A model generated the notes under the pieces. The model was not told the DNA's origin and made no database searches. It worked only from the letters and a program-made list of their open reading frames with translations. The translations under genes were made by a program, and so were the position numbers. From Longimicrobiales bacterium (GTDB lineage: Bacteria; Gemmatimonadota; Gemmatimonadetes; Longimicrobiales; Gaopeijiaceae), in contig JANQNV010000028.1 of the NCBI GenBank assembly GCA_028279425.1, positions 1 through 64,000 on the forward strand: a stretch of 64,000 nucleotides of DNA, read 5' to 3'. Below, one piece after another: positions 126-17,430 of the stretch (positions are counted from its first letter, which is position 1; the number at the start of each line of letters is the position of its first letter).

Positions 126-3056
126 ATGGACAACGCCTCCGCCCACGACGCCTGGACCCGGGCCCTCGCCGATCGCTACCGCATCGAGGGAGTGCTCGGT
201 GAGGGAGCCGCCGCGCGGGTCTACCGGGCCTACGACCTGAAGCACGACCGCCCCGTGGCGCTCAAGCTCATGAAACCCGATGTGGCTGCCGCGGTCGGGG
301 CACGACGCTTCGTCGAGGAGATCCGCACGACGGCGACGCTACGCCACCCCCACATCCTCCCGTTGTTCGACTCGGGCGAAGTCGACGGCCAGCTTTACGC
401 CGTCACCCCGTTCATCGACGGCGAAACGCTGCGCGGCCGACTCGACCGGGAGGGGCGCCTCGATCTGTCCGACGCCCTCGCCGTCGCCCGCGATGTCGGG
501 GCCGCGCTGGCGTACGCCCACGCACGAGGCGTCGTGCACCGCGACATCAAGCCTGAGAACATCCTGCTCGGCGATGGCGGGGCACTCGTCGCGGACTTCG
601 GCATCGCCCTGGCCCTCGGGACGGGCTCGGAGGCGTCCCCGCGCCTCACGGCCACGGGCCTGGTCGTGGGCACGCCCCGCTACATCAGCCCCGAGCAGAT
701 CGGAGGCGAGACCGTCGACGGCCGCAGCGACCTCTTCGCGCTCGCCTGTGTCGTGTACGAGATGCTGGTCGGAACCGCACCCTTCGAGGCCGACACCGTA
801 CAGGGACTCATTGGGCAGATCCTCACGTACGAGCCCGTTTCGCCGGCGTCGAAGGGTGTAGACATCCCCGCCGAGGTCTCCCAGGCGGTGCTCCGGGGAC
901 TCGCGAAGGACCCCGACCACCGCTTCGACACGGTCGACGAGTTCCTCGACGCTCTGGGCCCCGCCGTACACTCCGCGACCACCACCGGCCGGCGCGGCGT
1001 GGGCCTCGGCTGGGGCATCGCCGTCGTCGCGCTCGTGACGCTTGCCGGATCCGTCGGCTGGCGCACCGTCCAGCGATCGGAGGCGCGCTCGGCTTTGTTG
1101 GACGTGGGGGCCCTGGTCGATCAGGAGGCATGGCGGGCCGCCTACGACCGCGCCGTAGCCGTGGAGCGGTGGATTCCCGAGGATTCGGTGCTGCAGCGCT
1201 ACCTGCTCGAGGTGTCCGACCTGGTGACGGTCCGCTCGGACCCTCGGGGCGCCACCGTGCGCATCGAGGCGTACGACCCCGGTGCGGGGACGGCCTCCAC
1301 GGTCGAAACGCTGGGTGTGACCCCGATCGTCGACCGACGCCTTCCTCGGGGAGAGCATCGGCTCACCATCGAACTCGAGGGCCATGTCGCGCTCGAGCGC
1401 ATCGCCTCGACCGGACTGACGCGCGAACCGCTGGTCACGGCGGCGGAGGGGCGGCGGCTGGAGATCGACGTGACGCTTCGTCCCGATTCCGCCGTTCCCA
1501 CAGGCAGCGTGCCCGTGCCCGGCGGGGAGTACCTGCTGTCGAGCCCCGACGCGCCCAGCGGGTCGACCCACCCCCTCTCGGACTTCGCAATCGATCGGTT
1601 CGAGGTCAGCAACCAGGCCTACGCCGCCTTCGTCGAAGACGGAGGCTACGAGAACGACGCGTGGTGGTCAGGGGTCGAGCCGCAGCTCCGGCGGCAGCTC
1701 CGTGATCGGACCGGACTGCCCGCCCCACGGGAATGGGAGCGGCGCCGGCACCCGGATGGACGGGAGCGGCACCCGGTGTCGGGGGTCACCTGGTTCGAGG
1801 CCCGCGCCTTCTGCGCCTGGGCGGGCAAACGACTGCCGTCCATCTACGAATGGGAGAAGGCCGGACGTGACGGCCGCACCGCGGTGATCGGTGTGGTCAT
1901 GCCCTGGGGACAGGAGGGCTCGGCGCTCTCGACCGGCGAGCGTGCCAATTTCGCGAGCTCGGGAACCGTTCCGGTGGACGCCTTCCCGTTCGGGGTGAGC
2001 CCGTACGGCGTCTACGGGATGGCGGGCAACGTCCGCGAATGGGTCGCCAATTCGAGTGGGCCGGGGCGCGTCATCGCCGGCGGATCGTGGCTGGGGCCAT
2101 CCTACCTGTTCTCGGAGTACACCGCCGAGCCCCCGGACTTCGCCTCGCCGGGCGTCGGCTTCCGGTGCGCCGCGGGAGCCGGTGACTCTGGCGGTGACGC
2201 GCATCTCGCGGTCGACCCGCCGCCGCCGAGCTACCAACCGGTCGACGAACCGGGCTTCCGCGCTCTCCTGGACTTCTATCGATACGACCCCGTCCCCGCC
2301 CGCCCTCGAGATGCGGGCCGCACGGAGACTGCGGACTGGGTACGGGAGCGGGTGTGGATCGACGGGTTGGAGGGGGACTCGATCCTGGTCTACGCCTGGC
2401 TTCCGAAAGGGGCCGACCCTCCCCACCAGACGGTGCTCTACATCGCGAGCAGCGCCGCGTTCTCCGGCAAGAGCGTGCCCGACGAGGCGGAGTGGGTGAT
2501 CGCCCCGGTCATCCAGGCCGGCCGGGCCGTGGTCGCACCGGTGTTGCGCGGTATGGTCGAGCGGCCCGTGCCCGGCTTCCGGCCGCCGGATCCTCCTACG
2601 GTCGCGTTCCGTGAACTCATGGTCGCCCACGTCACCGAGGTGCGGATGGCGGTCGACTACGCCCTCGGCCGCCCCGACATCGACGCCGACGCCCTCGCGT
2701 ATGCCACGTTCAGCTTCGGGGCGGGCTCGCGACTGCCGATGGCCGTCGTCGAGGATCGCTTCGACGCCCTGGTCCTGATCGGAGGCGGAATCGATGAACG
2801 CGTGAAGCCGACGCTGCCCGAGGCGGACAATGTGAACTTCGCGCCGTACATCGCAGCCCCTGTGCTCCTCGTGAACGGTGCGAACGACGAAGAACACCCG
2901 TGGGCGACGCGCGGGAGCCCCCTCTGGAACCTCCTCTCCGAGCCCAAGGAGCTGGTGCTCGTCGAAGGCGGTGGTCACCTGCCCCCGCTCGAGGCGCGCA
3001 TCCTCGCGATCCAGGACTTCCTGGATCGGGTGCTGGGTCCCGTCGGGGGAGGCTGA
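126..3056 (+). CDS. Membrane Ser/Thr protein kinase fused to SUMF1-like and alpha/beta-hydrolase domains
   Basis: A 976-residue multidomain protein. Residues 20-285 are a Hanks-type kinase: glycine loop GEGAAARV (25-32), catalytic lysine in VALKLMK (K47), HRDIKPEN (138-145), DFG (157-159), and GTPRYISPEQ in the activation segment. A single hydrophobic span near 295-315 anchors it in the inner membrane. A PEGA-like beta domain follows (about 365-455), then a formylglycine-generating-enzyme/SUMF1 fold (about 466-680, with FEVSNQAYAAF, HPVSGVTWFEA, AGKRLPSIYEWEKA and GMAGNVREWV). The C-terminal 240 residues look like a dienelactone-hydrolase-type alpha/beta hydrolase. The order kinase inside, PEGA/SUMF1/hydrolase outside fits a signalling receptor or effector; substrates are unknown. 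ATG at 126 is the first in-frame start next to the kinase domain. Confidence 0.93.
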   Translation: MDNASAHDAWTRALADRYRIEGVLGEGAAARVYRAYDLKHDRPVALKLMKPDVAAAVGARRFVEEIRTTATLRHPHILPLFDSGEVDGQLYAVTPFIDGETLRGRLDREGRLDLSDALAVARDVGAALAYAHARGVVHRDIKPENILLGDGGALVADFGIALALGTGSEASPRLTATGLVVGTPRYISPEQIGGETVDGRSDLFALACVVYEMLVGTAPFEADTVQGLIGQILTYEPVSPASKGVDIPAEVSQAVLRGLAKDPDHRFDTVDEFLDALGPAVHSATTTGRRGVGLGWGIAVVALVTLAGSVGWRTVQRSEARSALLDVGALVDQEAWRAAYDRAVAVERWIPEDSVLQRYLLEVSDLVTVRSDPRGATVRIEAYDPGAGTASTVETLGVTPIVDRRLPRGEHRLTIELEGHVALERIASTGLTREPLVTAAEGRRLEIDVTLRPDSAVPTGSVPVPGGEYLLSSPDAPSGSTHPLSDFAIDRFEVSNQAYAAFVEDGGYENDAWWSGVEPQLRRQLRDRTGLPAPREWERRRHPDGRERHPVSGVTWFEARAFCAWAGKRLPSIYEWEKAGRDGRTAVIGVVMPWGQEGSALSTGERANFASSGTVPVDAFPFGVSPYGVYGMAGNVREWVANSSGPGRVIAGGSWLGPSYLFSEYTAEPPDFASPGVGFRCAAGAGDSGGDAHLAVDPPPPSYQPVDEPGFRALLDFYRYDPVPARPRDAGRTETADWVRERVWIDGLEGDSILVYAWLPKGADPPHQTVLYIASSAAFSGKSVPDEAEWVIAPVIQAGRAVVAPVLRGMVERPVPGFRPPDPPTVAFRELMVAHVTEVRMAVDYALGRPDIDADALAYATFSFGAGSRLPMAVVEDRFDALVLIGGGIDERVKPTLPEADNVNFAPYIAAPVLLVNGANDEEHPWATRGSPLWNLLSEPKELVLVEGGGHLPPLEARILAIQDFLDRVLGPVGGG

Positions 3057-3191: not shown

Positions 3192-4559
3192 ATGGATAGA
3201 CCAGCCAGAGTCGCAGTCGTTGGCGCCGGCCCCGCCGGGTTCTACGCCATCGAGGCGCTATTGAAGAATGACGTCGCTGTGGCCGTCGACCTCTACAATC
3301 GCTTCCCTCCGCCATACGGGCTGGTGCGGGACGGCGTCGCGCCGGATCACCAAGCCATCAAGTCGGTCACCCGGATCTACGAGAAGCTCCTCGCCCGAGA
3401 CGAGGTCCGGTACCTGGGAAACGTGACCCTCGGCAAAGACGTGTCAGCCGACGAACTGCGCAGCTGGTACGACATGGTCGTATACGCGGTCGGCGCCCAG
3501 ACCGACCGGCGCCTCTGGATCGACGGTGAGGACCTCGAGGGAAGCTATGCAGCGACGGCCTTCGTGGGCTGGTACAACGGCCACCCGGACTACCGCGACG
3601 CCGAGTTCGACCTCAGCTGTGAACATGTGGTGGTGGTGGGGAACGGAAACGTCGCCATCGACGTGGCCCGGATCCTGGTGCTCGACCTGGAGCGTCTCCA
3701 GACGACCGACGTCTCCGACCATGCGCTCGCGGCCCTTCGTGAGAGCCGGGTGAAAGAGGTGACCCTGCTCGGACGGCGTGGCCCGGCACAGGCGGCCTTC
3801 ACCAACAAGGAGCTGAAGGAGTTCGGTCAACTGGACGGCGTCTCGGTCGACGTTCGATCCGAAGACCTCGACCTCGACCCGGTCAGTCAGGCGCTCGTGG
3901 ATTCGGAATCGGTCCGCACCCGAAACATGAAGACCCTCCGCGAGTTCGCCGATGCCTCGATCGAGGCCGGCGATCGCGTGGTGCGCTTTCGCTTTCTCGT
4001 GTCGCCGATGGAAATCCTGGGCGACGATGGGCGCGTGAGTGGGGTCCGTGTGGAGCGCAACCGACTCGTGGAACAGGACGATGGTTCGATGCGCCCCCGC
4101 GGTACGGGGGAGACCGAGACGCTCGGCTGCGGCATCGTGCTTCGCTCGGTCGGCTATCGGGGAGCGCCCATCACCGGAGTGGCCTTCGACGACCGCCGGG
4201 GAATCATCCCCAACGCCGACGGCCGCGTAGTCGGTGAGGACGGTTCACCGCTCACCGGCGAGTACGTGGTAGGCTGGGCCAAGCGAGGGCCCTCCGGCGT
4301 CATCGGCACCAACAAGGCCGACGCAGCGGCGACCGTCGCCTCGATGATCGAGGACCTGGAGGGGGGCACACACCTCACCGCCGACCTCGATGCAGACCCG
4401 ATGCGGATCCTGCGAGACCGAGGGGTCGAGGTGGTGGATCTCGAGGGCTGGGCGCGGCTCAACGCCCACGAGTCCGCGGCCGGTGAAGAGCAGGGTCGTC
4501 CGAGGGTGAAGCTCTGCACGGTTCCGGAGATGCTCGAGGTCATCCGCGGCGGCGCATGA
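3192..4559 (+). CDS. fprA: FprA-type ferredoxin/adrenodoxin--NADP+ reductase
   Basis: A 455-residue FAD flavoprotein of the adrenodoxin-reductase/FprA family, which passes electrons between NADPH and ferredoxins. The N-terminal FAD Rossmann motif is VVGAGPAGFYAIEAL (about 9-23). The substrate-face signature FPPPYGLVRDGVAPDH follows near residue 38. The NADP-binding GNGNVAIDVARIL lies near 155, and the family C-terminal FAD motif VGWAKRGPSGVIGTNK near 358. Length and motif order match full-length family members. Its stop overlaps the next start (ATGA at 4556-4559), so it is probably co-transcribed with the glycosyltransferase, although no functional link is obvious. It may supply electrons to a cytochrome P450 or radical enzyme elsewhere. 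Confidence 0.93.
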   Translation: MDRPARVAVVGAGPAGFYAIEALLKNDVAVAVDLYNRFPPPYGLVRDGVAPDHQAIKSVTRIYEKLLARDEVRYLGNVTLGKDVSADELRSWYDMVVYAVGAQTDRRLWIDGEDLEGSYAATAFVGWYNGHPDYRDAEFDLSCEHVVVVGNGNVAIDVARILVLDLERLQTTDVSDHALAALRESRVKEVTLLGRRGPAQAAFTNKELKEFGQLDGVSVDVRSEDLDLDPVSQALVDSESVRTRNMKTLREFADASIEAGDRVVRFRFLVSPMEILGDDGRVSGVRVERNRLVEQDDGSMRPRGTGETETLGCGIVLRSVGYRGAPITGVAFDDRRGIIPNADGRVVGEDGSPLTGEYVVGWAKRGPSGVIGTNKADAAATVASMIEDLEGGTHLTADLDADPMRILRDRGVEVVDLEGWARLNAHESAAGEEQGRPRVKLCTVPEMLEVIRGGA

Positions 4560-5254
4560 TGCCCGAGTCGCCACCGACCGTCAGTGTCGTCATCCCGGCG
4601 TGGAATGCCGTCCGTTTCCTGCCGGCCGCCCTCGACTCCGTTCGCGGGCAGAGCTACGGCATTTTCGAGATCATCGTCGTCGACGACGGCTCGACCGACG
4701 GTACGGCCGAAGTGGCGCGCGCGACCGCTGACGTCACCCTGGTCGAGTCGGCTCGTGGCGGGCCCAGCGCCGCGCGCAACCTCGGCATCGGCCAGGCGTC
4801 GGGAGAACTCGTCGCCTTCCTCGACGCCGACGACATCTGGCTTCCTGCGAAGCTGGAGACACAGGTCGAAGCGCTACGGTCGACGGGGGCCGACCTCTGC
4901 CTCTGCCACGAGATCTGCTTCGTCGAAGAGGGCATGCCGCTCCCCACCTGGGCCCGACCGAAGATGCTCGAGGCGCACGCGGGACTGCTGTCGACAACGC
5001 TCGTTCGCCGCACCGCGCTGCGCGTGATCGGTCCCTTCGACGAATCGATGCGACAGGCCGAGGATCTCGATTGGTTCAGCCGAGCCGACGCGGCGGGCCT
5101 GGACCGGATCGTGGTCGACGACGTGCTCGTGCACAAGCGACTGCACGACGCGAACGCCACGGCGCGGAGCGACACCAACCGTGCGGCGATGCTCAAGATG
5201 GCGCGCAAGGCGATGCTACGGCGGCGACTCGCTGGGGGCGACGAACACCCCTGA
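4556..5254 (+). CDS. Family 2 glycosyltransferase
   Basis: A 232-residue GT-A fold enzyme. It opens with VSVVIPAWNAVRFLPAALDSV, followed by the nucleotide-sugar motif EIIVVDDGSTDGT (about 39-51), the GGPSAARNLGI segment near 73, and the metal-binding FLDADDIW near 89-96. The C-terminal third includes FDESMRQAEDLDWFSRA, where the ED is the usual acceptor-side acid. It transfers sugars from a nucleotide donor to a growing glycan or peptide; the acceptor cannot be told from sequence. The ATG overlaps the upstream stop by four bases, indicating translational coupling. It has the same size and layout as the GT2 at 7952-8650, suggesting a duplicated pair. It converges on the PqqD gene with 12 bases between stops. 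Confidence 0.92.
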   Translation: MMPESPPTVSVVIPAWNAVRFLPAALDSVRGQSYGIFEIIVVDDGSTDGTAEVARATADVTLVESARGGPSAARNLGIGQASGELVAFLDADDIWLPAKLETQVEALRSTGADLCLCHEICFVEEGMPLPTWARPKMLEAHAGLLSTTLVRRTALRVIGPFDESMRQAEDLDWFSRADAAGLDRIVVDDVLVHKRLHDANATARSDTNRAAMLKMARKAMLRRRLAGGDEHP

Positions 5255-5266
5255 GGGGAAGGCGCC

Positions 5267-5716
5267 CTACTCGGCCTTCTGGTCCTCGGGTGCGGCCATC
5301 GGCCAGCCCTGCTCGGTGACGTCGTGCACCGGGTCGAGCAGGAACATCTGCTCCATATCCTCGAAGCGCGACAGCCTCGGTGCGACGAAGCGGGTCCGGG
5401 GTCCGCTCTCCACAGGGGCGGATTGCTCCGGGGCCTCGGTCGCCGGGCTCTCCCGGAGAAGGCCCTCTTCGTGGAGCCTGTCGAGAAACGACGAAGCTGC
5501 ATCGCGCAGCGTCGTGCCCTCCTGCTCGTAGACCGCGTCGAGCCGGGTGCAGGCTTCGTCCAGGGTGAAGCCCCTGGAAAACAAGCCCCAGAGCGTCATG
5601 CCCGTCGCGTCGAGGCTGTAGTAGAAGCCGGTATCGAGGTGGATCAGGATCGTCTCGTCGCCGAAGTCCTCGAAGATGACGGAGGGTGTGTTGGCTTCGT
5701 AGCGTTGGGCCATCAT
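5267..5716 (-). CDS. PqqD-like (RRE) protein with DPVHDV...GWP C-terminal tail
   Basis: A 149-residue protein. Residues about 8-90 have the PqqD/RRE winged-helix pattern (IHLDTGFYYSLDATGMTLWG, then a helical stretch with TLDEACTRLD and FLDRLHEEGLL). This domain class binds leader peptides in RiPP pathways and is also found beside HPr-kinase-like genes. The C-terminal 60 residues are unusual for PqqD: a Pro/Glu linker, then PRLSRFEDMEQMFLLDPVHD (113-132) and GWP (137-139). That tail looks like a conserved functional segment rather than disorder and could itself be a modification substrate; this is inference. The start is one of two adjacent ATGs. The first overlaps the upstream glycosyltransferase stop as ATGA (5713-5716), so the two genes are coupled. 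Confidence 0.8.
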   Translation of the reverse strand: MMAQRYEANTPSVIFEDFGDETILIHLDTGFYYSLDATGMTLWGLFSRGFTLDEACTRLDAVYEQEGTTLRDAASSFLDRLHEEGLLRESPATEAPEQSAPVESGPRTRFVAPRLSRFEDMEQMFLLDPVHDVTEQGWPMAAPEDQKAE

Positions 5717-7836
5717 GGTTCCTCGGTCCGTGTCTCGCGCGCATGTCGGCGCTGAAGCATGTCGCGCAGGCGGGCGACCTTGTAGGCGTCGACCACCGTT
5801 TCGGTGTTGGCGAAGGCGAGCTCGACGATGCCTCGAAGCGCGGGCGGCATGGCACGCTCGTACTTCTTCAAGCGACTCTGCAGTCGCTGCTTTCGATTGT
5901 CGTCTCTGGAGCGGCTGTCCGGTAGCTTTCGGTACCAGAGCAGCGTCTCCGGTACGACCTCCAGGTGAAAACCGGCGAAGGCCGCATCGAGCAGCAGTTC
6001 CCAGTCCTCGTCGATGTTCCGGTCTTCGTGGAACCCACCGATGGAGCCGAAGCAGTCGGGGCGCATGAGAATCAGAGTGCCCCCGAGTTCGGGAGAGATC
6101 AGACCGGCCTCGAGCGCCGCGCCGAGCGGCAGGAGACGACGTGTGATCGGGGTCGCCTCGCCCGGTCGATCGGTGCCCTCGAACTCGGCGAGCCCACAGG
6201 TCACGACATCGGCTCCGGTGACCAACGCCGTGCGCACCATCTCCTCGACCGCATTCGGCTCGAGCACATCGTCGTCGTCTGCAAACAAGAGTAGATCGCC
6301 CGATGCGAGCGCGGCGGCGCGGTTTCGGGCGCGCGCCGGGCCGGCGTTGGTTTGCGTCTCGAGACGCCACCCCCGTTCGGCAAAGAGCGGTCCCAGTGCT
6401 TCGAGCCGATCGAGCGTAGCCTCGTCGTCGCTGCCGTCGTCGACCACGATGACCTCGAGCCGCGGGTAGGTCTGGCGGTCGAGGGACTCCAGGAGTTGCT
6501 CCAGCAGCTCCGGGCGGCGCCAGTGTGCAATGCAGACCGAGACGAGGGGCGCCGCCGGGCCGAGACTCCGGTCTCGTTCGGTGCTCTCCGCCTGGTCGTC
6601 GAGAGCGGCGGCCTCGCTGGAGTGCCAGGAGACCCAGCGCGCCCGCGTCTCATCGAGCGGCCGTGCCATCGACGCCTCGCGGTGCGGTTCCCGAAGGGCT
6701 TCGACCAACCTCTCGGCCAACGACGCCGGATCGAGGGAGCAGAGCGTGCGGCCGTGGTCTTCGGCGGCGATCAGCTCCGGAATGCCGCCGACCGTGCTGG
6801 TCACGAAGGGGATGCCGAGCAGAAGGCACTCCTGAATCGTGCACGGGGAGTTGTCGATCCTCGAGGGCATGACCGCCAGGCGACCGTCGCCCAGCAGGTA
6901 GGTGAGCGCCTGCTCGCGGCTCCGGCCGAGGAGAACCTCGGGGGGCGTGGGCCAGCGCTCGGCGTGCCGCGCGATCTTGAGGCTGCTGAGCTCCTGGTTG
7001 TGGAAGCGGGCATCGGCGCCGAGAAAGGTGACCTTCGGCTCGAGTCCCCGAGCGTGAACGAGGTCTACGGCATCGAGAAAGATGTCGAGCCCCTTCCGGC
7101 GATCGAGACGGCCGAAGAAGACGAGCTCCCGGATCGGCCGGCCTGCAGTCCTGCGCTCGAGCCCGACAAACGACTCGAGAGACTGGAGGTTCTGCTCCAC
7201 GAAGCTACGAGACGGGAGCGACCAGTCGTCGGCCTCGAGCCATTCGAGGAGATACCGACTCGGGCTGACCACCACGTCGGCAAGCTCGGTGCTGCGTCGC
7301 TCGAGAAAATCGGTGACGAGATCGTCCATCCCGTTGGCGAGCCGTCCCTCGGCGGGCCGGCTCCACCGCTGAGGTCCGTGCGTGCCGATCACCACGGTCG
7401 TGCAGTCGAGGGCGAGCCCCTGCTTTTTCGCCAGCAGGCTGTAGTAGCCGAGCCCCAGCCACTCCGGAAAGTGAACGACGTCGAAGCGCGGCTGCCCCTT
7501 GAGCCACTGGTAGGCCAGGTAGGAGGCCTCCTTGCGGTTCTGGAGCCAGTGGTAGTTTCCCTCGGCTCCGGCGAAGGGCACGAACGAAAAGTCGATCCCG
7601 CGCTGCCCGAGGCGCTCGCGCCAGTCCGCCTCCGATCCGACGTCGATCGCGCGCGCGACGTAGACGACGTGCACCGCATGCCCGGCCGATGCGAGCGCCT
7701 CGGCGAGGCCGGCGTACGCGGAGCCGACCCCGCCGCAGACGCGCGGTCCGTCGTAGTCCGAGGTGATCAGCGCGACGCGGGCCGGGCGATGGGATCCGCC
7801 GGCGTTCGGCAGCGGGGGAAACGACTTGGGGGGCAT
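5713..7836 (-). CDS. Bifunctional glycosyltransferase: GT4 domain fused to GT2 domain
   Basis: About 707 residues from the ATG at 7836, where MPPKSF precedes the first domain. The N-terminal half is a GT-B, family 4 enzyme: RVALITSDYDGPRVCGGVGS at the N-terminus, VVFFGRLDRRKGLDIFLDAV-type donor-domain start, and the PCTIQECLLLGIPFVTSTVG donor site. The C-terminal half is a GT-A, family 2 enzyme with LVSVCIAHWRRPELLEQLLE, EVIVVDDGSDD and a DDDD metal cluster in LLLFADDDDVLEPNA. Two transferases in one chain suggest sequential sugar additions. An in-frame ATG at 7953 would add 39 residues but overlaps the divergent gene's start codon and lacks homology-like sequence, so 7836 is preferred. It is coupled to the PqqD gene downstream. 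Confidence 0.88.
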   Translation of the reverse strand: MPPKSFPPLPNAGGSHRPARVALITSDYDGPRVCGGVGSAYAGLAEALASAGHAVHVVYVARAIDVGSEADWRERLGQRGIDFSFVPFAGAEGNYHWLQNRKEASYLAYQWLKGQPRFDVVHFPEWLGLGYYSLLAKKQGLALDCTTVVIGTHGPQRWSRPAEGRLANGMDDLVTDFLERRSTELADVVVSPSRYLLEWLEADDWSLPSRSFVEQNLQSLESFVGLERRTAGRPIRELVFFGRLDRRKGLDIFLDAVDLVHARGLEPKVTFLGADARFHNQELSSLKIARHAERWPTPPEVLLGRSREQALTYLLGDGRLAVMPSRIDNSPCTIQECLLLGIPFVTSTVGGIPELIAAEDHGRTLCSLDPASLAERLVEALREPHREASMARPLDETRARWVSWHSSEAAALDDQAESTERDRSLGPAAPLVSVCIAHWRRPELLEQLLESLDRQTYPRLEVIVVDDGSDDEATLDRLEALGPLFAERGWRLETQTNAGPARARNRAAALASGDLLLFADDDDVLEPNAVEEMVRTALVTGADVVTCGLAEFEGTDRPGEATPITRRLLPLGAALEAGLISPELGGTLILMRPDCFGSIGGFHEDRNIDEDWELLLDAAFAGFHLEVVPETLLWYRKLPDSRSRDDNRKQRLQSRLKKYERAMPPALRGIVELAFANTETVVDAYKVARLRDMLQRRHARETRTEEP

Positions 7837-7951
7837 CGCTTGGTCTGCTAGCGTAGGGAGTGGGCACACGACGGCGCCGGGAGCACCTCGCACGGCGAGC
7901 GCCGTCGTAACAGATTTCGACAGATTTCCAACACGATTCAAGAGTGCTTCC

Positions 7952-8650
7952 ATGCCTGACCCCCCCCTCGTCAGCGTCGTCATTCCTGCGTTCAACGCCG
8001 AGCGGTATCTCGGAGAGGCGCTGCGCAGCGTGCTGGATCAGACCCGACCCGCCGACGAGATCCTGGTGGTCGACGACGGCTCCGACGACGGCACCGTAGC
8101 CGTCGCGGAGGGCTTCGCCGGGGTGCGCGTGCTGCCCGGCGAGCATCGTGGACCCGGCCCGACGCGCAACCGCGGAATCGCGGCGGCGCGGGGGGTCTAC
8201 GTGGCCTTTCTCGACGCCGACGACCTCTGGCTACCCGACAAGTTGGAGCAGCAGGTCGCGGTGCTGGACACCGAAGACGAGATCGACCTCGTCTTCGGTG
8301 CGATGGATCAGTTCCATTCCGCGGAGCTGAGTGCCGAGGAGAGGCAGCGCCTCGAGTGCAAGACGGAGTCCACCCCGACGCCCCTGATGTCGTGTCTTCT
8401 GGCGCGACGGAGCGTGTTCGACCGGGTCGGTCCTCTCGACGATCACCTGGCGGACTTCGTCGCCTGGCTGTCCAGGGCGAAGAACCTCGGGGTCAAGGCC
8501 CGGTTCGTCGACGCCCTGGTGGCGCGGCGCAGGATCCACGGCGCCAACCTCAGCGCCGTGCGCAGGGCCGAAGTGCAGCGCGACTACCTGCGGGCCGCGC
8601 GCGCCTCGCTGCAGCATCGCCGCGCCGTGCTCGGGGGCGGGTCGTCTTGA
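7952..8650 (+). CDS. Family 2 glycosyltransferase
   Basis: A 232-residue GT-A enzyme with VSVVIPAFNAERYLGEALRS at the N-terminus, EILVVDDGSDDGT, GPGPTRNRGIAAARG and the metal-binding FLDADDLWLPDKLEQQV. It parallels the GT2 at 4556-5254 in length and domain order. The ATG at 7952 begins at the first residue of the domain. An upstream extension is open but does not look like protein and would overlap the opposite-strand gene. It heads a tight four-gene forward set (GT2, ABC exporter, nucleotidyltransferase, kinase-like). The next gene starts inside its stop codon region. Its acceptor is unknown. Confidence 0.92.
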   Translation: MPDPPLVSVVIPAFNAERYLGEALRSVLDQTRPADEILVVDDGSDDGTVAVAEGFAGVRVLPGEHRGPGPTRNRGIAAARGVYVAFLDADDLWLPDKLEQQVAVLDTEDEIDLVFGAMDQFHSAELSAEERQRLECKTESTPTPLMSCLLARRSVFDRVGPLDDHLADFVAWLSRAKNLGVKARFVDALVARRRIHGANLSAVRRAEVQRDYLRAARASLQHRRAVLGGGSS

Positions 8651-10365
8651 TTCGTCTCCGCCCGACCGCCGACGGTCGCCTCTTCGAAGCCTGGCCCATC
8701 TGGCGCCGCTTCTTCGCCGACTACTTCGACGGCATCGGCGGTCGCCTGGTCGTCTCGGTCTTGATCCGTGTGTTCCTGGTCCTGTCGACGCTCGTCATCG
8801 TCTACATCGCCAAGCTGATCGTCGACGAGGCGATCCCACGGGGCGAGCTCGGCCTGTTGGTGCGGCTCGGCGCCCTTCTGGTCGCCGTGCGACTGGCGGT
8901 CGTCCTGGCTTCGGCGCTCCTGCGTAAGTTCAACATCCATCTGATCCAGGAAGCCGTGTTTCGCCTGCGGCGGGATGTGGTGGAGCACCTCTATCGTCTT
9001 CCGCGCACCGTCTACAGCAACGTGCCGAACGACGATCTGCAGAACCTGCTCATCCAGGACACCACGCGGGTCAAGGAGACCTGCACCGCCGTTGTCAGCT
9101 ACCTGCTGCCCGCGGCCGTCAGCGCGGCCCTGCTCACCGTGGTGCTGCTCGTACTCGAGCCGTTCCTGAGTCTCGTCCTCCTGCTGGCGGTTCCGGTCAT
9201 GTTGCTATCGAGCCGGGCCATCGCCCGCGCGATGCGCTCCAACATCTCGGAGTTCCACTGGGCCTTCGACCGCTTCGCAGAAGCCGCCCGCTTTGCGACC
9301 CGGGCGCTCGACCTGGTGCACGTGCACGGCTCCGAGCAGACGCAGCGCTCTCGCCAGGTAGCGACGCTGGAGGAGTTGCGGGACACCGAGGGCCGCATGA
9401 CGTGGACGTGGGCCGTGCACAACGAGATGCAGAACGTCATCGTGGCCGCGGGTGCGGCGATCATCCTCGTCGTGGGAGGGCGGGCGGTGGTGCTGGGTGA
9501 CATGAGCCTGGGCGGATTCTTCGTCTTCTACCTCGTCGCGGGGATGCTGAACTACAACGGACAGACGGTGATCAACGGGCTGCCGCCCCTCCTGGTCGCT
9601 CACGAATCGCTGCAGGCCCTCTTCGGCATGCTCGATCTACCGTCGGCCGCGCCGAGCGACGCCTCGGAGCGCATCGACTTCACGGGGCACCTGGAGCTTC
9701 GCGGAGTGAGCTTCAGCTACGGCGAGCATCGCGTGATCGAGCAGGTCGATCTGGTCGTCGAGCCGGGCCGCCATGTGGCCCTCTACGGTGCAAACGGCGC
9801 CGGCAAGAGCACCTTGATGTACCTGCTTCTCGGTCTATACGAGCCGGGAGACGGCGCCGTCCTCGCAGACGGCACCGACTACCGCGACCTGGACCTGGCC
9901 CAGCTTCGGCAGAGCTTCGGGGTCGTGCTCCAGCAGCCGTTGCTCTTCGCCGGAAGCGTCCGAGACAACATCGCCTTCGGACTCGGCGAGGTGAGCGACG
10001 AGGAGGTGCGGCGGGCCGCACGTGCCGCATTCGCCGACGAGTTCATCTGCGAGCTGGAGCACGGCTACGACACGGAGATCGGCAACGAAGGCTCTCTGCT
10101 GTCGGGCGGGCAGCGACAGCGGATCGCCATTGCTCGCGCGCTTTTGCGGCGTCCCACGGTGCTCTTTCTAGACGAACCTTCCAACCACCTCGATCCGCGC
10201 ACGGCCAACGAGCTCTTCGCGCGTTTGAGCCGGATCGAAGGCACCACGCTCGTGATCATCTCGCACGATCGCCCCGTCCTGGAGACGGCGAGCTTCGTCT
10301 TCGAGGTCCGGGACGGCCGGCTCTTCGCGGGACCTCCGGAGGTTCTTGCCGTGGGTACGTCATGA
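8647..10365 (+). CDS. ABC exporter, permease fused to ATP-binding domain
   Basis: About 572 residues. Residues 1-310 carry six predicted membrane helices of the type I exporter fold, with the first around VVSVLIRVFLVLSTLVIVYI. Residues about 335-560 are the ATPase: Walker A GANGAGKST, Q-loop VVLQQPLLF, signature LLSGGQRQRIAIARALL, Walker B TVLFLDEPSNHLD and the H-loop in IISHD. A half-transporter of this kind works as a homodimer and exports lipids, glycolipids or peptides. No N-terminal peptidase-C39 domain is present. The start is inferred: TTG at 8647 overlaps the upstream stop (TTGA) and is the only in-frame start between that stop and the first membrane helix; the open frame extends further upstream only as a shadow. 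Confidence 0.9.
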   Translation: MIRLRPTADGRLFEAWPIWRRFFADYFDGIGGRLVVSVLIRVFLVLSTLVIVYIAKLIVDEAIPRGELGLLVRLGALLVAVRLAVVLASALLRKFNIHLIQEAVFRLRRDVVEHLYRLPRTVYSNVPNDDLQNLLIQDTTRVKETCTAVVSYLLPAAVSAALLTVVLLVLEPFLSLVLLLAVPVMLLSSRAIARAMRSNISEFHWAFDRFAEAARFATRALDLVHVHGSEQTQRSRQVATLEELRDTEGRMTWTWAVHNEMQNVIVAAGAAIILVVGGRAVVLGDMSLGGFFVFYLVAGMLNYNGQTVINGLPPLLVAHESLQALFGMLDLPSAAPSDASERIDFTGHLELRGVSFSYGEHRVIEQVDLVVEPGRHVALYGANGAGKSTLMYLLLGLYEPGDGAVLADGTDYRDLDLAQLRQSFGVVLQQPLLFAGSVRDNIAFGLGEVSDEEVRRAARAAFADEFICELEHGYDTEIGNEGSLLSGGQRQRIAIARALLRRPTVLFLDEPSNHLDPRTANELFARLSRIEGTTLVIISHDRPVLETASFVFEVRDGRLFAGPPEVLAVGTS

Positions 10366-11519
10366 CCAACCAGCCACAGACGGCGCTGCCGACCGAAGCC
10401 CAGCAGCACCTCCTGCGGGCCGCGCTGGGTCGAGGCGAGGGCGTCGAGCAGGCATGGAAGCAGTGGCTGGCCGCCGTCGACTTCGACGACATCGACTATG
10501 CGAGCCAGCGCCTGGTCCCTCTGCTCCGAAGCAACCTGATCGCGCACGGCATCGATCACCCTCTGCTGCCCCGCATGAAGGGCATCCATCGCTTCTTCTG
10601 GACCAAGAACCACGTTCGCCTCAGGGCGCTGGCGACGGTGGCCGAGGCATTCGCCCGCCATGACATCCCGCTCATGGCGCTCAAGGGCGTACCCCTGGCG
10701 CTGGTGTACTACTCGGACGCCGGGCTGAGGCCCATGAGCGACTTCGATCTGCTCGTACCGTTCGCCGAAGCAGACAGGGCCGTACGGCTCCTGTTGGAGG
10801 AAGGCTGGTCGCAACAAGAACCCGGATCGATCTACGGGCCCGACGGTCGGATCGACACCGAGTCGCGCCACGGCGCGTGCTTCGTGCAGGAAGACCAGGA
10901 GTGCGACCTGCACTGGCACCTTCTGTACGACGGCTGGTGGCCCGAAGCCGACGACGGGCTTTGGGAGCGCTCCGTACCGCTCGAAGTCCAGGGGCAGCAG
11001 CTGCGCGGTCCGTCGCCGGCCGACATGATCTTCCACCTCCTGGTGCACGGCTCCACCTACAACGAACTGCCGCCCTTCCGGTGGTACGCCGACCTCGCCG
11101 AGATGCTGCGAAAGCAGGAGTCGAAGATCGACTGGTCCGTTCTCGAGGAGCGAGCGAGGCGCCTGCTCCTGGTCGCCGTGGTTCGCGACATGATGGAGAG
11201 GTTCGACGCGTTGCTCCCGGGCATTCTGCCCCCTGCGGCGCTCGCGCGCATCCAGGCCCTTCCCGTTTCGCGAATCGAACGGCTGGAGCTCGCGCAGCGA
11301 CTGCGCGACAAGGACTATCGATACACCCCCGTGGGGCGCTGGGCACAGTTCCGCAGGCGCTACCCCAGTGGCAGTCCCCTGCGCCACGGCCCCACCTTCC
11401 TGCAGAGCGTCTGGGCAGTCCAGAGCCCGTGGGCGTTGCCCACCGAGTTCCTGTTCCGAGCTCTGCCTGCGTACCTCGGTCGGCTGGCGGGCCGGCCGGC
11501 CGGTGAAGCTCCCCGCTGA
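10362..11519 (+). CDS. Nucleotidyltransferase family protein (NTP_transf_5 type)
   Basis: A 385-residue protein of the NTP_transf_5 class. The core is HDIPLMALKGVPLALVYYSD followed by GLRPMSDFDLLVP (about 104-137): a GS-like loop and the D-x-D pair of the pol-beta nucleotidyltransferase fold. It continues with a conserved segment QECDLHWHLL and a helical C-terminal half. Members of this family occur in lasso-peptide and capsule/exopolysaccharide clusters next to HPr-kinase-like proteins; in lasso pathways relatives have been linked to peptide tailoring. It probably transfers a nucleotidyl group to a small molecule or peptide. The start overlaps the ABC stop (ATGA at 10362-10365) and the following gene begins 8 bases after its stop, giving a coupled operon. 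Confidence 0.85.
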   Translation: MTNQPQTALPTEAQQHLLRAALGRGEGVEQAWKQWLAAVDFDDIDYASQRLVPLLRSNLIAHGIDHPLLPRMKGIHRFFWTKNHVRLRALATVAEAFARHDIPLMALKGVPLALVYYSDAGLRPMSDFDLLVPFAEADRAVRLLLEEGWSQQEPGSIYGPDGRIDTESRHGACFVQEDQECDLHWHLLYDGWWPEADDGLWERSVPLEVQGQQLRGPSPADMIFHLLVHGSTYNELPPFRWYADLAEMLRKQESKIDWSVLEERARRLLLVAVVRDMMERFDALLPGILPPAALARIQALPVSRIERLELAQRLRDKDYRYTPVGRWAQFRRRYPSGSPLRHGPTFLQSVWAVQSPWALPTEFLFRALPAYLGRLAGRPAGEAPR

Positions 11520-11527
11520 GTCCGAGC

Positions 11528-13219
11528 GTGACCGACCGAGCCAGCGCCGATGCTCGAGGCGCCCGCCTTCTCGGGGAGCTCCTCGCCGGTTGGGAGGAGG
11601 CCGGTGGACCCGAGGTGGAGCGACGCTTCGAGGTGGCGGGTGGCCTGGTGCGGGTGCGCGGCCCGCGCGCCCTCCGCTTGGAGGAGCTCTGTTCGGCCTT
11701 CGCGCATCTGACGAACGGAGACACCGACGACGCCGCAGCGCTCGATCTGCGGGTGTACGACTCGTCGTCGGCGCCTCCGCCGGGCATGCCGTTCGCCCCC
11801 TATCAACTGACGGCGCGCGGTGAGATACACCGCTTCGACAGCGAACGCTTTCGCGTTGCGTTCCGCTTCGGCGAGTACACACTGAACGTCTACGACCGCG
11901 AGCGCCGCCTCGCCCTCGTCTGGACGCGAGATGCGAGTCGCCTGCCGGTCTGGTACCGGGCCGCGCCGTTTCGCACGCCGCTGCACTGGTGGACCGGCGA
12001 CCGCGGCCTGCAGCTCGTGCACGGCGCCGGAGTCGTGCGAGACGGGCGGGCAGCGCTGATCGTCGGCCGCGGCGGCTCGGGCAAGTCGTCGACGGCCCTC
12101 ACCTGTATGGAACGGGGTTTCGATCTTCTCGGCGACGACTACGTCGTCGTAGGGGGGGACCCCTTCCACCTCTGGAGCCTGTACTCGTCGGTCAAGGTCG
12201 TGCCTCAGCAACTCGGAGGCCGGCCGAGCTTGCACGGCCTCACCCCGACCGAGGACGGATCCTTCGACAAGTCGGTGTTCTTTCTGGCTCCCGATCGCGA
12301 TGAGTTTCTGGCTTCGGGGGCGCCCCTCGAGGTACTTCTGTCCGCGCGCGTCGCCACGGGGTCGACGACGAGTTCGCTCGCGACCTGCGATGCACTCGAG
12401 ATCGACGCTGCACTCTCGAGCGACACCCTGCGCCATCTGCCGCATGCCGGCCACGCGACGCAGCAGGTTCTCAACCGCCTGTCCACGAGCGTTCCCGCGC
12501 GCCGACTTCTGCTGGGCCGCGACAGAGATGGAGTGGCGAAGACGGTCGAGCACGCGCTGCGAACGGCGCCCACCATGGCGCCGCTGCAGGCCGAAGAGGA
12601 CCTCGAGCGACCCTTCGTCACCGTCATCCTGGCCGTCGAACGGGGTTGCTCTTCCGTGCCTCGGTGGATCGACGCGCTGGAGCGCGAGGACTATCCACGG
12701 ATCGAGTTGATCATCCTTCGGCACGACGCAGCCGAGATCTGCGAGACGCCGCCCGCGGAGCGTGTGGTGGTGACCAGCTTGCACGACCAACGTCGGCTGT
12801 CGCGGCCCGAGGCGTTCAACCGAGGGCTCCGGGAATCGATGGCCGAGCTGGTCGTCTTCGCCACCGGAGACCAGGCGTGGCCTCCGGGACAGCTGCGACG
12901 GGCGGTCGAGGTCCTGACCGCCGAGCCCGGAGTCGACGTCGTGGCGGGCGGACTTCTTCCGAGCCCTCCCGCGCCCGATCCCGAGCCGCCGGAAACGGAC
13001 GCGGTGCCGTGGCTCTTCCGCCGTTCGGCTCTCGAGCGGATCGACGGCTTCGACACGGGCGAGGTCCTCCCCGAGCAGGCTCTTCTCGGGCGTTTCGAAG
13101 GACGCGTGTCGAGGCTCTCCGGGCTCGAACTCCCCGCACCGGAGGCCATGTCTGAGAGCCAGGAGAGGGATCCGCGCGTAGAGCACGTACGCCAGTGGCT
13201 GGCGCGGAAGCGACGCTGA
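11528..13219 (+). CDS. HPr-kinase-like (HprK-related) protein fused to a degenerate GT2 domain
   Basis: A 563-residue fusion. Residues about 85-345 resemble the HprK/P C-terminal kinase family found in peptide and exopolysaccharide clusters: QLVHGAGVVRDGRAALIVGR, P-loop GRGGSGKSS (180-188, Lys186), acidic pair in LLGDDYVVV (203-204). Residues about 361-520 follow the GT2 fold (PFVTVILAVERGCSSVPRWI, RIELIILRHD, RGLRESMAELVVFATGDQAW), but the VDDGS motif and the D-x-D metal site are not recognisable, so this half may bind rather than catalyse. HprK-like enzymes phosphorylate serine residues on proteins or peptides. Candidate partners are the PqqD-tail protein or a polymer precursor. It is the last gene of the forward operon. 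Confidence 0.82.
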   Translation: MTDRASADARGARLLGELLAGWEEAGGPEVERRFEVAGGLVRVRGPRALRLEELCSAFAHLTNGDTDDAAALDLRVYDSSSAPPPGMPFAPYQLTARGEIHRFDSERFRVAFRFGEYTLNVYDRERRLALVWTRDASRLPVWYRAAPFRTPLHWWTGDRGLQLVHGAGVVRDGRAALIVGRGGSGKSSTALTCMERGFDLLGDDYVVVGGDPFHLWSLYSSVKVVPQQLGGRPSLHGLTPTEDGSFDKSVFFLAPDRDEFLASGAPLEVLLSARVATGSTTSSLATCDALEIDAALSSDTLRHLPHAGHATQQVLNRLSTSVPARRLLLGRDRDGVAKTVEHALRTAPTMAPLQAEEDLERPFVTVILAVERGCSSVPRWIDALEREDYPRIELIILRHDAAEICETPPAERVVVTSLHDQRRLSRPEAFNRGLRESMAELVVFATGDQAWPPGQLRRAVEVLTAEPGVDVVAGGLLPSPPAPDPEPPETDAVPWLFRRSALERIDGFDTGEVLPEQALLGRFEGRVSRLSGLELPAPEAMSESQERDPRVEHVRQWLARKRR

Positions 13220-16474: not shown

Positions 16475-17329
16475 TTACGCGTCGAAGGCGTATCCCTGCA
16501 GAAACGCATACCGCGAAATGCGGTCCTCGACCGAGCGAATGAGCGAGTCGGCCCACTCGACCTTCGAGCGACTCTGGTGCGGACTCGCTCGCACGATCGA
16601 CGAACACGCGTCGAGATAGTCGGGCGCCGCCTGGATCCCCAGTCCGGCACACAACGCGGCGAGTTCGGTGCGGGGGTCTGCGACGAAGTCCTCGTGGCGC
16701 ACGCGCAGGATCGCGCTGGAGCCGACCTGATCTTCGATCCAGCGGACGGTGTCGCACAGTTGGAAGTACTGCTCCGCGAACGCCTCCAGATCGAGCACGC
16801 CGACCTCCTCCTCGGCCCGGCGCGCCATGGTCGCGATGTTGTCGAAGGGATTCCGGATCACCTGGACGCACCGCAGACGGGGCGCGAGCCGAAGGAGCCG
16901 GTCCAGCGCGCGCGGAACGCTTCGGATGTAGAGGGTCGTACCCCACGCCTGTTTGTCGCCGATGACGCGCAGGGAATCGAAGCGCCCCTGCCAGCTCCCG
17001 GGCACCTTGTAGCCGTAGCGCTTCCCGTCGTCCCAGCGGTCCACTCCGGGCACCGACCTGTCCAGCAGGTACTGGAACAGCCGGTTGCGATCGTATCCCA
17101 TGGCGATGGGACGGATGGACATGAGCTCGTTGCCGATCACCACATCCTGGTGGGCATCGAGGACGGCACCCGTGATGGAGCTACCGCTGCGAGGATGGCC
17201 GATGAACATGCAAAACGTCTCGACCTTTTCGAAGAGCTCCGCGTTTCGGGCCGAGCGACGCCCGGATAAGGCGAACTCCCCGTATAGCCTGAGCCTCTTG
17301 GAGAGACCATCGAGTCGTTCCGAGATCAC
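16475..17329 (-). CDS. Sulfotransferase family protein
   Basis: A 284-residue P-loop enzyme. CMFIGHPRSGSSITGAVLDA (about 40-59) is the 5'-phosphosulfate-binding loop of the Sulfotransfer_3 type. LRCVQVIRNPFDNIATMARR near residue 135 supplies the 3'-phosphate-binding Arg/Ser region. It would move sulfate from PAPS to a glycan, lipid or peptide hydroxyl. It lies a module away from the glycosyltransferase/HprK cluster and could be a tailoring enzyme for the same product; this is inference from proximity. The GTG start at 17329 overlaps a TGA (GTGA) that ends a short protein-like remnant, suggesting it was once the downstream gene of an operon. Confidence 0.88.
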   Translation of the reverse strand: MISERLDGLSKRLRLYGEFALSGRRSARNAELFEKVETFCMFIGHPRSGSSITGAVLDAHQDVVIGNELMSIRPIAMGYDRNRLFQYLLDRSVPGVDRWDDGKRYGYKVPGSWQGRFDSLRVIGDKQAWGTTLYIRSVPRALDRLLRLAPRLRCVQVIRNPFDNIATMARRAEEEVGVLDLEAFAEQYFQLCDTVRWIEDQVGSSAILRVRHEDFVADPRTELAALCAGLGIQAAPDYLDACSSIVRASPHQSRSKVEWADSLIRSVEDRISRYAFLQGYAFDA

Positions 17330-17430
17330 TCGAGATCATCCACCGGGATGGGATTCGACCAGCTGCAGCGCGCCGGCGGGTGCACGTCGCACGGGACGAA
17401 GCGAACTTCATACTCCGCGGTGGCTCGTCA
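17326..17430 (-). pseudogene. C-terminal fragment of an unidentified upstream gene
   Basis: Thirty-three open codons on the minus strand read EVRFVPCDVHPPARCSWSNP and end in PVDDLE followed by TGA at 17326-17328. That stop overlaps the sulfotransferase GTG. An in-frame stop at 17428-17430 cuts it off upstream. The codon choice looks coding, but I do not recognise the family. The rest of 17431-17535 has no convincing gene. A GGGACACTAG sequence at 17530-17539 resembles the end of the MITE-like element at 37271-37438. Confidence 0.3.

What the first reader, a model, noticed from the sequence alone, without database searches (positions are those of the whole stretch)
5267..5716. PqqD-like carrier with a conserved-looking DPVHDV...GWP tail beside an HPr-kinase-like enzyme
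The N-terminal PqqD/RRE fold normally binds a peptide substrate. Here it is followed by a Pro/Glu linker and a tail with F-E-D-M, L-L-D-P-V-H-D-V and G-W-P (residues 114-139). No separate precursor gene is visible in the cluster, and lasso cyclase/protease genes are missing. The tail could be the modification substrate carried on its own recognition domain, phosphorylated by the HprK-like enzyme, nucleotidylated by the NTP_transf_5 protein and perhaps glycosylated. I have an impression that similar D-P-I/V-H-D/E-V...G-W-P tails occur in related PqqD or small-peptide genes, but cannot verify it.
Basis: partly seen in the sequence, partly recalled or inferred. Interest (0 to 1): 0.85.

Follow-up and report, generated by a model that had tools for sequence, protein, structure and literature searches.

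The report
Recognition protein with built-in leader peptide
A small bacterial protein of a kind that normally grips the front end of a peptide to be modified appears to carry such a front end, plus a strikingly conserved follow-on segment, as its own tail, usually beside a kinase and sugar-transfer genes, which points to a widespread but little-studied kind of peptide-modifying system.

Summary
The 149-aa gene at 5267-5716 (minus strand) is a PqqD/RRE domain plus a tail. Even without the columns fixed by the pattern, the tail is more conserved than the PqqD domain (1.67 against 1.36 bits). No stand-alone tail was found (134 tail ORFs: 131 with PqqD, 3 cut by an end). Searching with the HprK-like kinase instead found a tail-PqqD in all 9 high-scoring genomes of the phylum sample. 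The first half of the tail matches lasso-precursor leaders in one register only. AlphaFold makes it a confident strand and leaves the DPxH..GWP segment loose. Lower-scoring kinases sit in lasso-type loci with cyclases and separate precursors; tail loci have glycosyltransferases instead. Best reading: a natural RRE-leader-core fusion in a cyclase-free sister of HprK-type lasso/LPP systems. Whether the core is modified or is a docking motif is open: 25 of 109 tails have no Ser/Thr there.

The parts
5267..5716 (-). Tail-bearing PqqD/RRE protein, 149 aa (stop codon included)
   Evidence: PF05402 1.7e-12; AF2 mean pLDDT 87.7
5456..5656 (-). PqqD / RRE domain, residues 21-87
   Evidence: best structural match 5v1v TbiB1 with TbiA leader, E 3.6e-05; closest solved sequences to the family profile are TbiB1, 9x90 (PbaB1), TfuB1 and 9x8z (LppB) (the two names in brackets from PMC13381572)
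5390..5455 (-). Variable Pro/Glu/Ser linker, residues 88-109
   Evidence: Mean relative entropy 0.47 bits over 88-108
5342..5389 (-). Leader-like segment FVAPRLSRFEDMEQMF, residues 110-125, [YF]xxPxLxx[YF]xDMx[DE]LL
   Evidence: In register with 11 lasso-type leaders; predicted strand 115-118, block 111-120 at pLDDT 95
5270..5341 (-). Core-like segment, residues 126-149, holding DPVHDVTEQGWP (5300-5335)
   Evidence: Conserved in relatives; low confidence in the model, pLDDT about 61-70
5713..7995 (-). Glycosyltransferase, GT4 plus GT2 domains (start uncertain, overlaps the gene at 7763)
7763..8650 (+). GT2 glycosyltransferase (true start probably near 7949)
   Evidence: PF00535 1.1e-34
8659..10365 (+). 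ABC exporter, membrane plus ATPase domain, no C39 peptidase match (start uncertain)
10362..11519 (+). NTP_transf_5 nucleotidyltransferase
   Evidence: PF14907 4.2e-45
11528..13219 (+). HprK-like kinase with a GT2-like C-terminal part
   Evidence: PF07475 5e-05 and PF00535 1.8e-04, both below their cut-offs; 262 bits to the kinase profile A4; His, Walker-A Lys and Asp invariant in the family
4556..5254 (+). GT2 glycosyltransferase
   Evidence: PF00535 6.3e-32
3192..4559 (+). FAD/NAD(P) oxidoreductase; membership of the module uncertain
   Evidence: PF07992 1.5e-13

Best explanation
The gene encodes a natural RRE-leader-core fusion. The PqqD-type domain is a RiPP recognition element (RRE) whose usual ligand, a [YF]xxPxL leader of the lasso-precursor type, is fused to its own C-terminus through a flexible linker and docks in cis in the leader groove (leader resemblance in register shown; ordered strand predicted; groove inferred). 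The constant segment that follows, DP[IV]H[DE]Vx3-4GWP, sits where the core of a precursor would be. It is left exposed and is presented to the HprK-like kinase, the NTP_transf_5 protein and the GT2 glycosyltransferases of the same cluster (clustering shown; contact and modification inferred). An ABC exporter completes the module. The system is a cyclase-free, glycosyltransferase-rich sister of HprK-type lasso and LPP systems, in which RRE and precursor have become one chain, so no separate precursor is needed.
For: 110 of 120 pattern stretches are tails of PqqD-type ORFs. Never seen stand-alone: 134 tail ORFs (125 distinct ends), 131 with PqqD in the same frame by a profile of the family itself, 3 cut by an end. 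Residues 7-16 of 11 lasso-type leaders score -2.0 on the tail profile against -20.4 (sd 1.9) for shuffles (0 of 20,000 as high) and -16.1 or lower at the 22 other offsets; [YFW]xxPx[LVIFAM] occurs in 65 of 109 tails against 5.9% of shuffled segments. AF2 makes that segment a strand and leaves the core loose, in P0002 and in a Mesorhizobium protein without the YxxP. Kinase gene in 98 of 110 stretches, 96 on the same strand, its domain starting within 400 bases downstream of the motif in 73. Kinase-first search: 9 of 9 phylum genomes above 250 bits have a tail-PqqD, three of them (G000, G001, G002) known before; class of G314: 5 of 5 loci, G314 chosen through its tail. Tail against lower-scoring kinases: GT2 72 of 99 vs 0 of 23, cyclase 0 of 99 vs 13 of 23. 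Separate lasso-type precursor: 3 candidates in 1.03 Mb of tail loci (5 in reversed DNA; one of the 3 is the tail itself) vs 11 in 176 kb of plain loci (1 reversed).
Against: 44 of 109 tails lack the strict leader motif, and 25 of 109 have no Ser/Thr from residue 120 on, so a Ser-directed kinase like LppK or PsmK has no constant target in the core. A core this constant across phyla is unlike most RiPPs. No leader peptidase or core-releasing step is visible. I had no coordinates, so the strand partner in the models was not inspected. Only one leader type was sought as a separate precursor. One tail locus has a B2-like gene (L067), one a weak cyclase match (L040), and one of 17 wider loci an Asn-synthase gene (L185). 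10 of 109 members do not reach PF05402 at 0.01. The 11 leaders are not all independent (L002 and L030 are near-identical, two lie in L176). The kinase profile was built from tail-associated kinases, the GT2 profile from tail loci and the cyclase profile from a plain locus, which favours the contrasts.
Confidence: 0.55

Rival explanations
1. The tail is a docking module, not a substrate: the leader-like strand closes the RRE and the DPxH..GWP segment recruits the HprK-like kinase (or NTP_transf_5), whose real substrate is something else, such as a sugar, a lipid carrier or an unrecognised peptide.
For: Constancy across phyla; no constant Ser/Thr in the core; pairing with one kinase clade (92 tail-type vs 23 lower-scoring sequences, no mixing, local support 0.72); a kinase Lys kept in 76 of 89 type I but 0 of 3 type II and 1 of 23 lasso-type kinases, and an NTP_transf_5 Gly kept in 56 of 69 type I, 0 of 7 type II, 3 of 4 type IV and 1 of 14 lasso-type proteins (phylogeny not controlled).
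Against: The ordered segment matches substrate leaders in register, which a mere docking motif need not do; the core end is swapped for other ends in further tail types while a kinase of the same family stays.
Confidence: 0.33
2. Pseudo-leader autoinhibition: the tail blocks the leader groove until a true, separate precursor displaces it.
For: Predicted ordered strand in the leader-like segment.
Against: No separate lasso-type precursor above the reversed-DNA control in 122 tail loci; does not explain why the part that is not ordered is kept.
Confidence: 0.08
3. Chance or annotation artefact: an ordinary PqqD with a random C-terminal extension.
For: Only that a single-sequence search of genome contigs found no relative.
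Confidence: 0.01

Closest known systems
Linear polyphosphorylated peptides, LPP (PMC13381572: section 6 and passages read)
   Same: Discrete RRE, HprK-like kinase, NTP transferase, MsbA-like exporter, loci rich in glycosyltransferases, [Y/W]xxPx[V/L] leader
   Different: LPP has a separate precursor with YxxPxVLxHQxIxFETxxS, a variable core and an SpI-type leader peptidase; here leader and a constant core are fused to the RRE
HprK-type lasso peptides (paeninodin, pseudomycoidin; PMC9266682, passages read) and the lasso cluster on contig C62 of this same genome
   Same: RRE of the same family, HprK-like kinase, NTP_transf_5, ABC genes, matching leader
   Different: Lasso clusters have cyclase, B2 protease and a separate precursor (on C62 MYQKPQLERFGTLRELT...); tail loci nearly all lack these and most carry GT2 genes
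Borosins, where the core is fused to its own methyltransferase (recalled, no call)
   Same: Substrate peptide fused to a protein of its own pathway
   Different: There it is fused to the catalyst; here to the recognition element
PqqD of PQQ biosynthesis (PF05402, TIGR03859)
   Same: Fold
   Different: P0002 does not match TIGR03859; that true PqqD has no such tail is recalled

Membership tests
RRE / PqqD fold (PF05402) | Profile match and RRE fold | tested here: met
   1.7e-12, over the cut-off; TbiB1 5v1v top structural match
Lasso peptide system | Asn-synthase-like cyclase in the cluster | tested here: not met
   None among the window genes scanned; 1 weak match in 112 tail stretches, 0 of 99 cuts around the kinase
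Lasso peptide system | B2 leader protease (PF13471 type) | tested here: not met
   1 of 112 tail stretches (L067) vs 25 of 49 plain loci; the seed of the profile is PF13471 at 3.6e-19
Lasso peptide system | Separate precursor with YxxPxLxxxGxxxxxT leader | tested here: not met
   None above the reversed-DNA control in 122 tail loci; related leader present, but fused
LPP | RRE, HprK-like kinase, NTP transferase, MsbA-like exporter | tested here: met
   All four in the window; kinase 98, NTP_transf_5 61, ABC 25 of 110 stretches of at most 8 kb
LPP | SpI-type signal peptidase and separate precursor | tested here: inconclusive
   SpI was not searched for with its own profile; separate precursors were sought only by a lasso-type pattern
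LPP | Conserved core Ser that the kinase phosphorylates | tested here: not met
   25 of 109 tails have no Ser/Thr from residue 120 on
HPr-rel-A system PqqD (TIGR04353) | NCBIfam equivalog match | tested here: not met
   P0002 not matched; 8 of 109 members match at 1e-3, best 2.1e-05
RRE-precursor fusion (proposed) | Leader docks in cis in the RRE groove | tested here: inconclusive
   Strand predicted; coordinates not available to check its partner
RRE-precursor fusion (proposed) | Covalent modification of the core | not testable with these tools
   Needs mass spectrometry

The most novel reading that the evidence does not exclude
The fused tail is a constant peptide acceptor: HprK-like kinase, NTP_transf_5 and a lineage-specific set of GT2 enzymes build a variable phospho-glycan on the DPxH..GWP peptide while its own RRE holds it, and the ABC protein exports the product. 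It would be a RiPP-like system in which the sugar part varies and the peptide does not. Release could come from self-cleavage at the conserved Asp-Pro, followed by x-His, which recalls the GDPH motif that cuts itself in VWD domains (PMC10880436, passages read).
Probability: 0.2. Interest if true: 0.92.

Novelty: new variant of a known kind. Interest (0 to 1): 0.74.

Why it matters
RRE mining expects the precursor to be a separate short gene. Here the precursor-like part lies inside the RRE gene itself, in many phyla from cyanobacteria to Clostridia, so such mining could list the RRE and miss its ligand. A 2025 survey of RREs notes that 21% of PF05402 proteins exceed the discrete size with no other annotation (PMC12710340, section 6 read); this family would be one concrete answer. 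A single-chain recognition-plus-leader protein is also a ready-made tool for studying how an RRE hands a core to kinases and sugar-adding enzymes, and it makes the unclear chemistry of the HprK/NTP_transf_5 pair testable on one small protein.

Tried and rejected
Single-sequence search of genome contigs with P0002 found nothing (77 stretches, none confirmed), so the DNA pattern was used. Tails as stand-alone peptides: looked for with a tail profile in 165 loci (some overlap) and the window, none. Separate precursors: a regular expression of lasso leaders gave nothing above the reversed-DNA control in tail loci; only this leader type was sought, so an unrelated precursor could be missed. Conserved phospho-Ser in the tail: rejected as a general feature. 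Viral origin: 2 hits in viral contigs, both with out-of-frame spacing, and 0 for a codon-scrambled pattern. Defence system: no PADLOC match for P0002, kinase or NTP_transf_5; the ABC protein matches four models, all through its ATPase part. Plasmids: one record, Crinalium. Kinase and NTP_transf_5 positions specific to tail type: suggestive only, phylogeny not controlled. Natural fusions of tail-PqqD with kinase or NTP_transf_5, which would allow a one-chain model of the contact: none noticed; the entries printed as 'fused' were not checked for frame and I take them for overlapping neighbouring frames. Rows left out: L105 (tandem), L053, L127 and L139 are not in A1, which holds 106 of the 110 loci plus P0002, L003, L032. 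A3 used 86 of those locus proteins plus P0002, A4 68 of 78 eligible kinases, A6 59 rows. Neighbour families: of 367 candidate neighbour ORFs, 122 were scanned (GT2 in 95) and 110 (first 25 of 148 families shown); the rest were not scanned. The 49 plain loci include L002 and L209, which overlap, and L029, a chance hit; in the 23 lower-scoring kinase cuts only 4 show a PqqD, none with a tail. The 134 tail ORFs have 125 distinct ends. In one search only one PqqD per locus was printed.

Full report
What is there. The window gene at 5267-5716 is on the minus strand and encodes 149 residues. Residues 21-87 are a PqqD domain (PF05402, 1.7e-12). The nearest solved structures are lasso and LPP recognition proteins: TbiB1, 9x90, TfuB1 and 9x8z by sequence of the family profile (9x90 is PbaB1 and 9x8z is LppB according to PMC13381572), TbiB1 with its TbiA leader by fold (5v1v, E 3.6e-05). 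A variable linker and a tail follow. Around it lie two glycosyltransferase genes (4556-5254 and 5713-7995), a GT2 (7763-8650), an ABC exporter (about 8659-10365), an NTP_transf_5 gene (10362-11519) and an HprK-like kinase with a GT2-like C-terminal part (11528-13219). No Pfam or NCBIfam model matched the tail itself at the limits used.

The tail is conserved. 118 have the in-frame spacing and 2 do not, which puts the chance in-frame hits at about two. Eight are DNA polymerase I; 110 are tails of PqqD-type ORFs, 109 C-terminal and one inside a tandem ORF. The 80 record titles shown name, among others, Alphaproteobacteria, Deltaproteobacteria, Clostridia, Planctomycetia, Gemmatimonadaceae, Synechococcus, Anabaena, Acidimicrobiia, Bacteroidetes, Chloroflexi groups, Chlamydiae, Opitutaceae, Acidobacteria, Thermodesulfovibrionia and Aminicenantes; MAG titles are not all reliable. 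In 109 aligned members the tail averages 2.33 bits per column, but nine of its columns are fixed or narrowed by the pattern; without them it is 1.67, against 1.36 for the PqqD domain and 0.47 for the linker. Free positions are strongly kept: Y, F or H at 118 in 109 of 109, D120 in 97, L124 in 93, P113 in 77, F/Y110 in 69. 99 of 109 match PF05402.

It is fused wherever seen. With a tail profile, 134 ORFs (125 distinct ends) in 165 partly overlapping loci plus the window match; 131 hold PqqD in the same frame, by a profile of this family, and the other three are cut by a contig or stretch end.

It comes with one kind of kinase. An HprK-like gene is in 98 of 110 stretches (each at most 8 kb), 96 on the same strand, its domain starting within 400 bases downstream of the motif in 73; NTP_transf_5 is in 61 and the ABC protein in 25. 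To avoid choosing by the tail, I searched with the kinase profile in 298 genomes of the window's phylum (the profile itself was built from tail-associated kinases). Listed hits fall into two groups: 9 above 250 bits and the rest at 106 or below. All 9 genomes have a tail-PqqD: eight in the fetched cluster, and G246, whose kinase contig ends, on another contig. G000, G001 and G002 were known before. Eight have DPxH..GWP and one (G001) has a second type ending LDPPMPGLGTVPAE. In the class of G314, all five loci have a tail, one (G488) of the second type; G314 itself had been chosen through its tail. Kinases of tail loci and the lower-scoring kinases split cleanly on a tree (92 and 23 sequences, local support 0.72). 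The kinase keeps its His, Walker-A Lys and Asp in 89 of 89 type I sequences.

Contrast with lasso clusters. In cuts of about 3.5 kb around the kinase, GT2 genes are in 72 of 99 tail loci and 0 of 23 others; a lasso-type cyclase in 0 of 99 and 13 of 23; only 4 of the 23 show a PqqD, none with a tail (the GT2 profile was built from tail loci, the cyclase profile from a plain one). In whole stretches, a B2-like protease is in 1 of 112 tail and 25 of 49 plain loci, a cyclase in 1 of 112 and 27 of 49, and in one of 17 wider tail loci (L185 has an Asn-synthase gene some kilobases from the kinase). The window's own genome has both kinds: contig C62 carries a lasso cluster with a tail-less PqqD, a PF13471 protease-type frame, cyclase, HprK-like kinase, NTP_transf_5, ABC genes and a separate precursor MYQKPQLERFGTLRELT....

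The first half of the tail is like a lasso leader. Tail: F-V-A-P-R-L-S-R-F-E-D-M-E-Q-M. C62 leader: Y-Q-K-P-Q-L-E-R-F-G-T-L-R-E-L. I collected 11 separate precursors from plain-PqqD and plain-kinase loci with a pattern fixing [YFW]xxPx[LVIFM], a Gly and a Thr. Their residues 7-16, scored on the tail profile, average -2.0; shuffles average -20.4 (sd 1.9; 0 of 20,000 reach the observed value) and none of the 22 other offsets scores above -16.1. Each leader lies at or above the 95th percentile of 1,513 background windows with the same start. The Gly and Thr of the pattern are not favoured by the tail profile, so the agreement is not built in; the 11 are not all independent. The strict leader motif is in 65 of 109 tails (5.9% of shuffled segments); the other 44, such as those of Mesorhizobium and Clostridia, keep the aromatic or His position 118. 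A third tail type, such as ...YEPPQVSPFGELEQLILSGE, even keeps the leader's Gly (L242, L243).

Predicted structure. With 87 sequences, AlphaFold2 gives P0002 a mean pLDDT of 87.7; residues 101-110 and 111-120 average 87 and 95 and contain a strand at 115-118, while 121-149 drop to about 61-70. A Mesorhizobium protein without YxxP behaves alike at lower confidence: a strand at 111-114 in a block averaging 72, then a core near 50. So the DPxH..GWP part is not held by its own domain in the models; since it is nevertheless kept, it probably binds, or is worked on by, something else. I had no coordinates and could not see which strand the leader-like segment pairs with.

Mechanism. Shown: conserved fusion, leader resemblance in register, pairing with one kinase clade, GT2/NTP_transf_5/ABC surroundings, near-absence of lasso cyclase and B2 and no lasso-type separate precursor above the control. 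Predicted: an ordered leader-like strand. Inferred: cis docking in the groove, and presentation of the core to the kinase and partners. For the chemistry, pseudomycoidin PsmK phosphorylates the C-terminal Ser and PsmN then adds hexoses (PMC9266682, passages read), and LppK phosphorylates Ser 3 of the LPP core (PMC13381572, passages read). The tail offers no constant Ser/Thr: 25 of 109 have none from residue 120 on. Either another residue is modified (Asp, His and Trp are constant in type I, as the search pattern required), or the core is a docking motif. A kinase Lys kept in 76 of 89 type I kinases but 0 of 3 type II and 1 of 23 lasso-type ones hints at contact with the type I core, without control for descent.

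Novelty. Literature searches for PqqD with HprK, HPr kinase, polysaccharide or glycosyltransferase, and for RRE-precursor fusions listed no title or abstract start that describes this family; most listed papers were not opened. Passages of RRE-Finder (PMC7470986) and of the 2025 RRE survey (PMC12710340, section 6 and passages) name RRE-enzyme fusions but, in what I read, no RRE-precursor fusion. Supplements were not read, and subscription papers and preprints are not in the library.

Noticed in passing
L209 (G000 contig C62), about 7064-7222 minus for the precursor: The same genome carries a lasso-peptide cluster with HprK-like kinase, NTP_transf_5, ABC genes and a separate precursor MYQKPQLERFGTLRELTLIGLGRDGDGGIQGFG...
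   Followed up: partly
L105, 7085-7999: Tandem ORF PqqD-tail-PqqD with a second, divergent tail (record titled Terriglobia bacterium MAG)
   Followed up: no
L245, L246, L247: Small-genome cyanobacteria (about 1.7-1.9 Mb) have two PqqD genes in tandem beside the kinase: one with a GWT- or GWS-type tail, one with a tail that lacks the DPxH motif
   Followed up: partly
L242, L243: Third tail type ...FGELEQLILSGE on PqqD beside a lower-scoring HprK-like kinase and NTP_transf_5, without a cyclase match in 16 and 14 kb
   Followed up: partly
L192, L205, L244, L248: Second tail type ...DMA[DE]LLALDPP[ML]P, which keeps Asp-Pro but loses His and GWP; seen in the window's phylum and in the class of G314
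   Followed up: partly
window 126-3056: Ser/Thr protein kinase fused to a formylglycine-generating-enzyme-like domain with a PEGA domain
   Followed up: no
window 16478-17335: Sulfotransferase (PF13469) about 3 kb beyond the kinase; could belong to the glycan side of the cluster
   Followed up: no
Genome contigs titles: Some MAG titles look unreliable, for example records titled Klebsiella pneumoniae (L068) and Akkermansia muciniphila (L060)
   Followed up: no
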